Source: Alphaproteobacteria bacterium
GTDB taxonomy: Bacteria; Pseudomonadota; Alphaproteobacteria; Rhizobiales; Beijerinckiaceae
Reading direction: 5' to 3'
NCBI GenBank assembly: GCA_016869595.1
Contig: VGDT01000010.1
Coordinates: 1 to 64,000, forward strand
Length of the DNA stretch: 64,000 bases
Shown: positions 53,998-57,843 of the stretch, one piece after another
Numbering within the stretch: the stretch's first letter is position 1
Layout: every line of letters starts with the position of its first letter
The notes under the pieces: generated by a model
The model's input: the letters and a program-made list of their open reading frames with translations, nothing else
What the model was told of the DNA's origin: nothing
Databases searched by the model: none
Program-made: the position numbers and the translations under genes

Positions 53998-54239
53998 GGC
54001 TCTTCCCCCGCGAACCTCATTTCAGCGAGGTCTGAGCGCTTTTCCGGTTAAGTTCTGTGCGATAGCGCAAGCGCAGGGCGCTGAGCCATTACTTCGATGA
54101 AAGAGTAATGCGCGGCGCGAGCCTTGTGAATCCTTACGGGTTTACACATGCCTGTGAGCCGCCAAAAAAGCCGAACTGTGGCGGCTACGCTACAGTCGCG
54201 CCGGCGCCGAATCCAGGTTAGCGAGGCGTCATCTCACCG

Positions 54240-54374
54240 CGTCATGGCTGCGCTTGTCGCGGCCATCCACACGACGACATGATGCAAATGTGAGAACATG
54301 AGCCGATGCCGTCTCCGCGTAATGCGTTTCGCGATGTCCCGGCGTGGATGCCCGGCGCAAGGCCGGGCATGACG
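54240..54374. repeat. palindromic intergenic repeat, family A copy 2
   Basis: CGTCATGGCTGCGCTTGTCGCGGCCATCCAC...AATGCGTTTCGCGATGTCCCGGCGTGGATGCCCGGCGCAAGGCCGGGCATGACG; same architecture as 37255-37362. Confidence 0.85.
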
Positions 54375-54486
54375 GCTGAAAGCGAGCTGAAATTAACCCG
54401 AGTTCGGAGGCCCGTATAGTCGTTCCGGGCGATGGCGGGCCAGACTCGAACACGCTATGATCCGACGTCGATCCTCGAGGCCGCGG

Positions 54487-54780
54487 ATGAAACCCTATAT
54501 CGTCATCGTCCATAAGGACGAAAACAGCGCCTACGGCATGAGCTTTCCCGACGCGCCGGGATGTTTTTCGGCCGCTGACGAAATCGACGATATCTTCGCC
54601 ATGGCTGCTGAGGCGCTGGAGCTTTGGGCGGAGGGGATGCGCGAGGACGAGCAGCCGATCCCTGAGCCGCGCGATTTTGAAGTCTTGCGGGCCGATCCGA
54701 AATGGGCGGAGAGTTTTGCCGACGCGGAAATCGTGATCGCCGTCGAAGCGCCATGGGCGCAAAAGCAAGCGGCTGAGTAA
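54487..54780 (+). CDS. hicB: HicB-type antitoxin
   Basis: MKPYIVIVHKDENSAYGMSFPDAPGCFSAADEIDDIFAMAAEALELWAEGMREDEQPIPEPR HicB partial RNase H-like fold. Confidence 0.88.
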   Translation: MKPYIVIVHKDENSAYGMSFPDAPGCFSAADEIDDIFAMAAEALELWAEGMREDEQPIPEPRDFEVLRADPKWAESFADAEIVIAVEAPWAQKQAAE

Positions 54781-54975
54781 TTAGTCTCTTGGCCAACCTG
54801 CGCTTTCATAAATGCTGAGCACGGTTTTTGGCGGCATGTCTTTCTTCGGGTGCGCCACGGTCACACGACCGGATTTCGTCGGATGCTTGAACTGGCGATG
54901 CGAGCCTTTGGAGCGCACGAGTCGCCAGCCCTCTTTTTCGAGGCGGCGAATGATATCGCGGCTGTTGGTAAGCAT
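54781..54975 (-). CDS. hicA: HicA-type mRNA interferase toxin
   Basis: MLTNSRDIIRRLEKEGWRLVRSKGSHRQFKHPTKSGRVTVAHPKKDMPPKTVLSIYESAGWPRD; GSHxQFxHP catalytic motif. Confidence 0.92.
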   Translation of the reverse strand: MLTNSRDIIRRLEKEGWRLVRSKGSHRQFKHPTKSGRVTVAHPKKDMPPKTVLSIYESAGWPRD

Positions 54976-55102
54976 GTGAGCGCCTTATGATTCGGCGCTC
55001 ATTATTTCAGCAAAAACCCACCTCTGCGGGATTATGCAAATTACGGTGATGAAATGCGGGGAGATTGGGGAAAGACACTTGTCAATCCTTGACTGTCTCG
55101 AA

Positions 55103-57463
55103 TCACCCCGCTTCCACAAAACTCTCCAACACCATCTTTCTGCCGGCCTTGTCGAAATCGACCGTGAGCTTGTTCCCGTCGACCGCCGCCACTGAGCCTG
55201 GCCCGAACTTCAGGTGAAACACCCGCGCGCCGACCGAAAAGCGCGAGCCGCCGGAGGAGCGGGCGATCACTTCGCCGTCGATCGTCATCGGTTGCTTCCC
55301 TCGTGAGCCGCGGGACTCGCGCATCGGCTCGCCGCGCGCTGAATCATTCCGCGCCGCCTGGGCGCGCTTCCAGCCCGGCGTCGAATAGTCTGAGCCATAG
55401 ACGTCGAGATTGGCGAAGCGCGAGACGCCATAGGAGCCGTATTGCGAGGCGTTCGGCGCCTCGACCACTTCAACATTGTCCGACGGCAGATTGTCGATGA
55501 AGCGCGAAGGAATGGTCGGTTGCCAAAGACCATGAATGCGCCGGTTGCTGGCGAAATAGATTTTCGCCCAGCGCTTGGCGCGCGTCAGGCCGACATAAGC
55601 GAGACGGCGCTCTTCCTCGAGTCCGGCGCGTCCCTGTTCGTCAAGCGTGCGCTGGCTCGGAAACAGTCCTTCCTCCCAGCCGGGGAGATAAACGGTCTCG
55701 AACTCGAGGCCCTTGGCGCCATGCAGCGTCATGATCGACACGCGCTCTTGATCAACGGCGCTGTCGGCCTCCATGACGAGCGACACATGTTCGAGAAATG
55801 AGTCGAGGTCGGGAAAGGCCTCCATCGCCCGAACAAGTTCTTTCAAATTGTCCAGCCGGCCGGTCGCCTCGGGCGTCTTGTCCGCGCGCCACAGCTCAGT
55901 ATAGCCAGATTCGTCAAGCGCCTGCTCGGCGAGCTCATGCTGCGGCTTTGTATCGATCAGCGCGCGCCAGCGATCGAAATCACTGACAAGGCCGCGCAGC
56001 GCGCCGCGGGGCTTAGGCTTAAGCTCCTCGCTTTCGACAAGGATGCGCGCCGCCTGCATCAGCGGAACCCGCTCGCGCCTTGCGTATTCATGCAGCATTT
56101 GCAGCGTCGCGTCACCGAGCCCGCGTTTCGGCGTATTGATGATGCGCTCGAAGGCGAGATCGTCGGCAGGCTGCGCGACGCAGCGCAGATAGGCGAGCGC
56201 GTCGCGAATTTCGAGTCGCTCATAGAAGCGCGGGCCGCCGATGACGCGATAGGGCAGGCCGATCTCGACGAAGCGCTCTTCGAATTCGCGCATCTGAAAC
56301 GAGGCGCGCACGAGAATGGCGATCTCTTCGAGCGAATCGCCCTTGCGGCTCGACTGCTCGATGTCTTCGCCGATGACGCGCGCCTCTTCCTGGCTGTCCC
56401 AAACGCCGGTGAGCGTCGGCTTTTCGCCGTCGCCGCCGTCGGTGAACAGCGTTTTGCCGAGCCGCCCGTCGTTATGGGAAATCAGATGCGAGGCGGCGGC
56501 GAGAATATGCCCCGTCGAGCGGTAATTGCGCTCCAGGCGAATGACTTTGGCGCCGGGAAAATCCTGCTCGAAACGCAGGATGTTTTCGACCTCGGCGCCG
56601 CGCCAGCCATAGACGCTCTGATCATCGTCGCCGACGCAGCAGAGATTTTGTCGCCCCGGCGCACGCCCTTGCGAGATCAATCGCAGCCATAAATATTGCG
56701 CGACATTCGTGTCCTGATATTCGTCGACGAGGATGTATTTGAAGCGGCGCTGATAGTCGGCGAGCACGTCCGGATTGTCGCGAAAGAGCCGCAGGCTCTC
56801 CATCAAGAGATCGCCGAAATCGACGGCATTTAGGACCTTGAGCCGCTCCTGATAGAGCGCGTAAAGCGCGGCGCCTTTGCCATTGGCGAAGCTCTCGGCC
56901 TCGCCCGCTGGAACCTGCGCTGGCGTCAGCCCGCGGTTCTTCCAGCCGTCGATGCGCATGGCGAGCGCGCGCGCCGGCCAGCGCTTATCGTCGATATTTT
57001 CCGCATGTAGCACTTGCTTCAAAAGGCGGATTTGATCGTCTGTGTCGAGAATGGTGAAGTTCGGTTTCAGCCCGACGAGCTCGGCGTGGCGGCGCAGAAT
57101 CTTGGCGCTGATGGCGTGAAAGGTGCCGAGCCATTGCATGGCCTGCGCGCCTTCGCCGACCAGCGCCTCGACGCGTTGGCGCATCTCGCGCGCCGCCTTA
57201 TTGGTGAAGGTGACGGCGAGGATTTCATAGGCGCGCGCCTTGCCGAGCGCGAGGATGTGGGCGATGCGCGTCGTCAGCGCCCGCGTCTTGCCCGTGCCGG
57301 CGCCGGCGAGCACCAGCACCGGTCCGTCGAGCGTTTCGACGGCGGCGCGCTGTTCGGGATTGAGCGCGTCGAGATAACGCGACCGCCCAGTCGCCGCCAC
57401 GCGCGCAGCAAGCCCGCCCGTCTGCGGCGCGTAGTCGGACTGAGGCGACAGGCTGCTTTTCAT
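55103..57463 (-). CDS. uvrD: UvrD/PcrA-type DNA helicase II
   Basis: LNPEQRAAVETLDGPVLVLAGAGTGKTRALTTRIAHIL; CVGDDDQSVYGWRGAEVENIL; LTRAKRWAKIY. ATG at 57463. Confidence 0.95.
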   Translation of the reverse strand: MKSSLSPQSDYAPQTGGLAARVAATGRSRYLDALNPEQRAAVETLDGPVLVLAGAGTGKTRALTTRIAHILALGKARAYEILAVTFTNKAAREMRQRVEALVGEGAQAMQWLGTFHAISAKILRRHAELVGLKPNFTILDTDDQIRLLKQVLHAENIDDKRWPARALAMRIDGWKNRGLTPAQVPAGEAESFANGKGAALYALYQERLKVLNAVDFGDLLMESLRLFRDNPDVLADYQRRFKYILVDEYQDTNVAQYLWLRLISQGRAPGRQNLCCVGDDDQSVYGWRGAEVENILRFEQDFPGAKVIRLERNYRSTGHILAAASHLISHNDGRLGKTLFTDGGDGEKPTLTGVWDSQEEARVIGEDIEQSSRKGDSLEEIAILVRASFQMREFEERFVEIGLPYRVIGGPRFYERLEIRDALAYLRCVAQPADDLAFERIINTPKRGLGDATLQMLHEYARRERVPLMQAARILVESEELKPKPRGALRGLVSDFDRWRALIDTKPQHELAEQALDESGYTELWRADKTPEATGRLDNLKELVRAMEAFPDLDSFLEHVSLVMEADSAVDQERVSIMTLHGAKGLEFETVYLPGWEEGLFPSQRTLDEQGRAGLEEERRLAYVGLTRAKRWAKIYFASNRRIHGLWQPTIPSRFIDNLPSDNVEVVEAPNASQYGSYGVSRFANLDVYGSDYSTPGWKRAQAARNDSARGEPMRESRGSRGKQPMTIDGEVIARSSGGSRFSVGARVFHLKFGPGSVAAVDGNKLTVDFDKAGRKMVLESFVEAG

Positions 57464-57843
57464 GATTCTGCGATCATATAGGAGAACGGAAGGCGAATCA
57501 CGAGCTTGAGCGGCTTGAACCTCAGCTATTGACCCATTTTTGCCTTGCCGAGCGTCCGCTGACGGGACGAGCGCTTCATGGCGCGGGGGGCGCCGGCGAC
57601 AGCACAATGCCTCCGGTCTTCGATCACAGGTCAGTTTTGCTCAGACGGGGCGGGCGGCTGGACGGGGTGTTTTGTCGCCATTGGCGATCACCGCCACAGA
57701 ATGATCGGAATTTCCTCTCAAACTCGACGTTCTTTACATTCCGAAAAGCAAGTGACGGCACTCTCAGCTCAGCGAAGACGTTCAGCGAATTTCTGCCGGA
57801 ATATTCTTTAGGTCCGGCGACGGGTCATGGGGGCTCCAAAATC

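What the first reader, a model, noticed from the sequence alone, without database searches (positions are those of the whole stretch)
54487..54975. hicB and hicA arranged tail-to-tail (convergent) instead of as a co-directional operon
Seen: hicB stop (TAA, 54778-54780) directly abuts the reverse-strand hicA stop (54781-54783), with zero intervening bases. Known: HicAB modules are normally one operon, usually hicA then hicB. Here each gene needs its own promoter, and read-through would create antisense RNA over the partner. A 7-bp inverted repeat GAGCGCC-N9-GGCGCTC (54978-55000) sits just upstream of hicA and could be its operator. Inference: an unusual control mode mixing transcriptional interference with protein neutralisation. 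The HicB lacks an obvious C-terminal HTH.
Basis: partly seen in the sequence, partly recalled or inferred. Interest (0 to 1): 0.66.

Follow-up and report, generated by a model that had tools for sequence, protein, structure and literature searches.

The report
Conserved tail-to-tail HicB–HicA toxin–antitoxin pair
In Methylocystis and related bacteria a bacterial poison gene (hicA) and its antidote gene (hicB), normally read together as one unit, have been kept facing each other end to end across many species, and the poison gene carries a recurring mirror-image DNA motif right at its start that probably keeps it under control.

Summary
hicB (54487-54780, +) and hicA (54781-54975, -) meet stop-to-stop with no base between. 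It is not an assembly error. Twenty convergent pairs occur in 298 genomes of the family, all in one HicB clade, while all 81 pairs outside that clade are co-directional. Across 23 distinct convergent loci the gap is 0 or 1 bp (one overlaps by 4). Both genes are under purifying selection, the two proteins covary, and decay removes hicA while hicB stays. HicB is a small antitoxin without a DNA-binding domain, so the pair derives from 'Class 1' HicAB. At this locus beside uvrD, hicB stays in place while hicA lies either upstream (operon) or downstream and reversed. hicB has its own promoter signature.

An inverted repeat at the start of hicA recurs in 13 of 23 convergent loci with different arm sequences (about 1.4 expected; 0 of 23 at hicB starts). 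It may be a DNA operator, or an RNA hairpin that masks the ribosome site, above all in read-through transcripts from upstream genes. Transcriptional interference is possible but untested. New variant of a known kind.

The parts
54487..54780 (+). hicB, 97-aa antitoxin without DNA-binding domain
   Evidence: PF15919 E 8.7e-22; AlphaFold2 mean pLDDT 89.6; Foldseek best hits B. pseudomallei HicB 6g26/6g1c; dN/dS 0.04-0.13 among close relatives
54781..54975 (-). hicA, 64-aa toxin; GSH motif with His26 invariant in 24 aligned sequences
   Evidence: PF07927 E 1.3e-21; alignment A2; dN/dS 0.02-0.20 among close relatives; alpha-beta-beta-beta-alpha model, pLDDT 88.5
54778..54783 (.). abutting stop codons TAA|TTA, zero bases between the genes
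   Evidence: gap 0/1 bp in 22 of 23 distinct convergent loci, -4 in one
54977..55001 (-). inverted repeat TGAGCGCC-N9-GGCGCTCA one base before the hicA start codon, overlapping its Shine-Dalgarno (AAGG)
   Evidence: same position with different arms in 13/23 convergent loci, swapped-halves null 0.03-0.07 against 0.59 observed; folds as RNA hairpin
55001..55006 (-). AATAAT, -10-like box adjoining the 5' arm of the repeat (weak; hicA promoter in the window not established)
   Evidence: sequence; hicA promoter scores not above shuffles overall
54432..54461 (+). hicB promoter-like site: ATGGCG-18-TATGAT, 25 nt before the ATG
   Evidence: -10-like box at similar distance in most convergent loci; mean best score 7.67 against 3.5 in shuffles (0 of 100 as high)
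55103..57607 (-). uvrD/pcrA-type helicase, same strand as hicA and 127 bp upstream of it; synteny anchor
   Evidence: PF00580 E 9.8e-88, PF13361; beside the locus in convergent and co-directional relatives
55017..55030 (-). weak terminator-like hairpin between uvrD and hicA
   Evidence: 3 found in region, 1.2 expected
54169..54186 (-). terminator-like site about 600 nt beyond the hicA stop; a hicA transcript ending here would be antisense to all of hicB
   Evidence: consensus match only

Best explanation
This is a cognate type II HicA/HicB toxin-antitoxin pair, descended from the compact 'Class 1' HicAB type, whose genes stand tail-to-tail as a stable lineage-specific arrangement. HicB, made from its own promoter, neutralises the HicA ribonuclease by direct binding; having no DNA-binding domain, it does not repress transcription in the usual way. 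hicA is expressed separately and sits downstream of a same-strand gene (uvrD here). An inverted repeat spanning the presumed transcription start region and the Shine-Dalgarno keeps its expression low. I think most likely the repeat masks the ribosome site as an RNA hairpin in read-through transcripts, which would otherwise make toxin without antitoxin; a DNA operator is nearly as likely. Shown here: convergence, its conservation, constraint, protein covariation, hicB promoter signature, recurrence and covariation of the repeat. Inferred: toxicity, neutralisation, and how the repeat acts. The confidence is for the whole statement; for a cognate, conserved convergent pair alone it is about 0.95, and for the read-through-masking step about 0.4.
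For: 20 convergent pairs, all in one clade; 81/81 pairs outside it co-directional. Gap 0/1 bp in 22 of 23 loci. Low dN/dS in both genes. HicA distance follows that of the C-terminal half of HicB: partial r 0.80, 0/2000 permutations as high. hicA broken or absent with hicB intact in several members, never the reverse among close relatives. HicB fold and missing DNA-binding domain. hicB promoter signature. Inverted repeat at hicA 13/23 against 1.4 expected, 0/23 at hicB, 8/52 at co-directional hicA; arms covary.
Against: No expression or toxicity data. Where a hicA promoter is recognisable (L011, L013, L063, L066) the 5' arm overlaps the -10 or the expected start, so own-promoter transcripts would lack it: this fits an operator or read-through masking, not a hairpin in the normal mRNA. 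Three wobble pairs favour RNA, other mismatches do not. Six of 15 clusters have no exact repeat. Some Methylosinus-group loci are not beside uvrD, and their upstream gene was not established.
Confidence: 0.55

Rival explanations
1. The inverted repeat is a DNA operator over the hicA start site, bound by a repressor (HicB or HicAB through an unrecognised surface, or an unlinked regulator).
For: In the loci with a recognisable promoter the repeat begins at the -10 and ends at the Shine-Dalgarno, a classical repressor position. HicB of other classes binds palindromic operators (PMC10865869).
Against: HicB has no DNA-binding domain. Arm sequences differ between loci and arm spacing varies from about 11 to 25 bp, unusual for one dimeric regulator.
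Confidence: 0.35
2. Control by convergent transcription: read-through of each gene makes antisense RNA over the other, so hicA and hicB also repress each other at RNA level (hybrid of type I and type II).
For: No room for a terminator between the genes; no terminator-like site placed so as to end either transcript before it crosses the partner gene; spacing of 0/1 bp kept across diverged loci.
Against: No RNA evidence. Constant spacing also follows from common descent. Rho-dependent termination cannot be seen in sequence.
Confidence: 0.3
3. Neutral rearrangement: the arrangement arose once, works no differently from an operon and is kept only by descent.
For: All convergent cases lie in one HicB clade and share the same spacing; a co-directional group is nested among them in the trees, so orientation can change.
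Against: The inverted repeat at hicA is enriched in convergent loci against co-directional ones (13/22 against 8/52, Fisher p 0.0004; loci are related, so p is optimistic), and the split promoters imply some rewiring.
Confidence: 0.3
4. Assembly inversion, or two unrelated orphans whose real partners lie elsewhere.
For: The genome holds one further HicA (contig C27) and one further HicB-like protein (contig C25).
Against: Same arrangement in about 20 independent genomes. The C27 hicA has its own co-directional upstream partner ORF and the C25 HicB-like is a distant UPF0150-like protein at 29% identity.
Confidence: 0.02

Closest known systems
HicAB Class 1 (Gerdes 2024, PMC10865869): hicAB with small HicB lacking a DNA-binding domain
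   Same: HicA of 64 aa, HicB of 97 aa, partial RNase H fold, no DNA-binding domain; co-directional relatives at the same uvrD locus are of this kind.
   Different: Class 1 is defined as a bicistronic hicA-hicB operon; here the genes are convergent on opposite strands. None of the 14 classes is convergent.
E. coli K-12 / B. pseudomallei / Y. pestis HicAB (Classes 3 and 4)
   Same: Homologous toxin and N-terminal antitoxin domain (6g26, 6g1c, 4p78).
   Different: Those HicBs carry an HTH or RHH domain and repress a common operon; absent here.
Type I toxin-antitoxin loci (toxin gene and antisense RNA on opposite strands)
   Same: Toxin gene and antitoxin on opposite strands, likely overlapping 3' ends.
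   Different: Here the antitoxin is a protein with a conserved reading frame; no antisense regulation shown.
IS10/IS50 transposase genes protected from read-through (own knowledge, not confirmed in the library)
   Same: An inverted repeat spanning start site and ribosome site would hide the latter only in read-through RNA.
   Different: Shown experimentally for those elements, only inferred here; unrelated genes.

Membership tests
HicAB type II toxin-antitoxin family | HicA domain with catalytic His | tested here: met
   PF07927 over full length; His26 invariant in A2
HicAB type II toxin-antitoxin family | HicB partial RNase H fold next to hicA | tested here: met
   PF15919; AlphaFold2 model matches HicB structures
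HicAB type II toxin-antitoxin family | HicA toxic, HicB neutralises it by binding | not testable with these tools
   Only indirect: covariation, toxin lost before antitoxin
HicAB Class 1 (Gerdes 2024) | HicB of about 67-97 aa without DNA-binding domain | tested here: met
   97 aa, ends after the RNase H-like domain
HicAB Class 1 (Gerdes 2024) | Co-directional bicistronic operon, hicA before hicB | tested here: not met
   Convergent, opposite strands
Type II TA loci as usually defined | Two tandem genes on the same strand (TADB 3.0, PMC10767807) | tested here: not met
Type II TA loci as usually defined | Autorepression by the antitoxin | not testable with these tools
   No DNA-binding domain in HicB; inverted repeat present at hicA
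Type I TA | Antitoxin is an antisense RNA | not testable with these tools
   hicB is a constrained protein gene; antisense overlap possible but unmeasured

The most novel reading that the evidence does not exclude
A type II pair split onto opposite strands in which the toxin is controlled not by its antitoxin's DNA-binding domain but by a self-complementary element at its own start, hiding the ribosome site in read-through RNA, with overlapping antisense 3' ends as a second layer. It would answer how HicAB modules without a DNA-binding domain can be regulated.
Probability: 0.3. Interest if true: 0.75.

Novelty: new variant of a known kind. Interest (0 to 1): 0.62.

Why it matters
Type II toxin-antitoxin loci are defined, and searched for, as two tandem genes on one strand (TADB 3.0, PMC10767807), so pairs like this would be missed by such pipelines. 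Gerdes 2024 (PMC10865869) names the control of HicAB modules without a DNA-binding domain as an open question. This clade offers a natural experiment: the same hicB at the same uvrD locus with hicA in operon or convergent form, and a covarying inverted repeat at hicA that can be mutated arm by arm.

Tried and rejected
Misassembly: rejected by recurrence. Partner elsewhere in the genome: rejected. Relic: rejected by dN/dS. A conserved-sequence operator: rejected, since arm sequences differ between loci; first taken as evidence against the repeat, then reversed when the position and self-complementarity proved to recur. Terminator between the genes: no room. A consensus hicA promoter in the window: not found. 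Single origin of convergence: trees of 98 and 64 columns are poorly resolved and the AU test rejects one exclusive clade (p 0.0009 for HicB, 0.019 for HicA), with a co-directional group nested inside; one gain plus a reversal, or several gains, cannot be told apart. Ad hoc detection of upstream genes gave shadow ORFs that conflict with the synteny in L012, L066 and L068; synteny was used instead. Plasmid records gave only distant HicB relatives; their gene orientation was not examined.

Full report
Observation. The two genes are as described: hicB 54487-54780 (+), hicA 54781-54975 (-), stop codon against stop codon with no base between. HicB matches PF15919 over the first 74 of 123 positions (E 8.7e-22) and HicA matches PF07927 over its full length (E 1.3e-21). 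HicB is 97 aa; its model (mean pLDDT 89.6) is the partial RNase H fold with a short, poorly predicted C-terminal helix and no DNA-binding domain, and its nearest solved structures are HicB antitoxins (6g26, 6g1c, 4p78). HicA keeps the GSH motif; His26 is invariant in 24 sequences.

It is not an artefact, and not unique. The genome is a Methylocystis-like alphaproteobacterium (nearest named relatives M. suflitae, M. silviterrae, M. rosea). In 298 genomes of the family I paired the listed HicA hits with the listed HicB hits: 20 pairs are convergent, all with the window's type of HicB (at least 60% identity); 8 pairs with that HicB type are co-directional; all 81 other pairs are co-directional with hicA first. 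In samples of the order and of the phylum (348-349 genomes each) I read the neighbour pairs by eye: roughly 70 and 75 pairs, all on one strand except the window's own. In 23 distinct convergent loci the gap between stop codons is 0 bp (15), 1 bp (7) or -4 bp (1).

The locus. Next to the pair lies uvrD (55103-57607, -). DNA comparison shows the same neighbour in many convergent and co-directional relatives. hicB keeps its place and direction; hicA is either just upstream of hicB (operon) or downstream and reversed, on the strand of uvrD. Trees of HicB and HicA put the co-directional group inside the convergent ones with weak support; the AU test rejects one exclusive convergent clade. Polarity is open. 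The identical spacing argues for one origin of the convergent state (inference).

The pair is cognate and maintained. Among six close relatives dN/dS is 0.04-0.13 for hicB and 0.02-0.20 for hicA. HicA distances follow those of the C-terminal half of HicB (r 0.86; partial r 0.80 given the N-terminal half; 0 of 2000 permutations), not those of the N-terminal half (partial r 0.00) (relatedness is not controlled). In L016, L070 and L074 the 3' part of hicB and hicA differ together from the window while the 5' half of hicB and the flanks stay alike, as if the specificity block were exchanged as a unit. Where the locus decays, the toxin goes: M. rosea (L064) has lost about 67 bp of hicA including the catalytic region, L054 has a frameshift, L071 keeps only the last hicA codons, and L069 and L073 have hicB without hicA. 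No close relative has hicA intact without hicB. The other HicA in the genome (contig C27) has its own overlapping upstream partner ORF, and the other HicB-like protein (C25) is a distant UPF0150-like protein.

Control elements. hicB carries a -10-like TATnnT box 21-29 nt before its ATG in most convergent loci; the mean best promoter score is 7.67 against 3.5 in shuffles, with 0 of 100 as high. For hicA the score is not above shuffles overall (18 of 100), but L011, L013, L063 and L066 share TTGACG-15-TAnnnT.

The inverted repeat. In the window its arms are 8 bp (54977-55001) and by itself it could be chance. But an exact repeat of at least 6 bp with its 3' arm within 12 nt of the start codon is found at 13 of 23 convergent hicA genes (shuffles: mean 1.4, maximum 6 in 200), at 0 of 23 hicB starts of the same loci, and at 8 of 52 co-directional hicA genes (shuffles 2.85). 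Joining the 5' part of one locus to the 3' part of another gives 0.03-0.07 instead of 0.59, so the arms match within a locus, not between loci; 9 of 15 sequence-independent clusters (grouped by eye) have it. Arm sequences differ (TGAGCGCC, AGGCGCC, GGGCAC, GATCGCC, CTCCAG, TCCTGAT, TTCCTCG). The order is -10-like box, 5' arm, loop, 3' arm over the Shine-Dalgarno, start codon. Two of the 13 (L005, L019) lie inside the end of an upstream gene and may be chance. This search was set up after seeing the repeats, so the position limits were not fully blind. In the window the leader folds better than shuffles (z -2.2).

Mechanism. With separate promoters, hicA can be transcribed without hicB, above all by read-through from uvrD or from genes inserted in the gap: L062 and L074 have a gene upstream that runs up to the hicA start (in L062 a CAP12/Pycsar-type TIR gene whose stop overlaps it), L063 has a HigB-like toxin with an HTH partner, and L070 has a second hicAB plus an HTH gene. 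A repeat with one arm at or before the start site and the other over the ribosome site would silence such read-through RNA while leaving own-promoter RNA translatable, a known device of IS10/IS50 transposase genes (own knowledge; not confirmed in the library). The same geometry suits a DNA operator. I cannot separate them: variable arm sequence and spacing and three wobble pairs (L016, L066, L010) lean to RNA, while promoter overlap leans to DNA. Antisense overlap of the two 3' ends is likely from the geometry, since no terminator-like site is placed to end either transcript before it crosses the partner, but no consequence is shown.

Relation to known systems. Gerdes 2024 lists 14 genetic contexts of HicA, none convergent, and asks how classes without a DNA-binding domain are controlled. 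TADB 3.0 describes types II to VII as typically tandem genes on one strand and searches accordingly. Searches of the held papers for convergent or tail-to-tail hicA/hicB found nothing; subscription papers are not covered. I file it as a HicA/HicB protein pair of Class 1 ancestry in a new convergent arrangement; it fails the co-directional operon criterion of Class 1.

Noticed in passing
L062:3493-4554 (-); a similar upstream ORF in L019/L074: A CAP12/Pycsar-type TIR-domain gene (PF10137) inserted between uvrD and hicA, its stop overlapping the GTG start of hicA; candidate defence gene possibly translationally coupled to a toxin gene.
   Followed up: partly
L063:2503-3076 (-), L070:3671-4444 (-): The uvrD-hicA gap is an insertion hot spot for toxin-antitoxin genes: HigB-like toxin with HTH partner in L063; a second hicAB plus HTH gene in L070.
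   Followed up: partly
L064:3001-3463 (Methylocystis rosea SV97): hicA carries a deletion of about 67 bp including the catalytic histidine region, while hicB is intact apart from a tandem duplication of a few codons near its start.
   Followed up: partly
L072:3001-3660, L073:3001-3563: hicB faces a second hicB of another type tail-to-tail (overlapping ends); hicA of the convergent pair is gone, and in L073 the toxin of the second module is gone too.
   Followed up: partly
L016, L070, L074 against window 54607-54900: Allelic block: 3' half of hicB plus hicA diverged together inside conserved flanks, suggesting exchange of a specificity cassette.
   Followed up: partly
54348-54370: Perfect inverted repeat ATGCCCGGC-N5-GCCGGGCAT in a stretch that matches L081 at 93%; looks like a dispersed palindromic repeat.
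   Followed up: no
L094:1181-1677 (own genome, contig C27): A second HicA (PF07927, 35 bits) with an ORF upstream that overlaps its start by one base, probably a separate antitoxin-toxin operon.
   Followed up: partly
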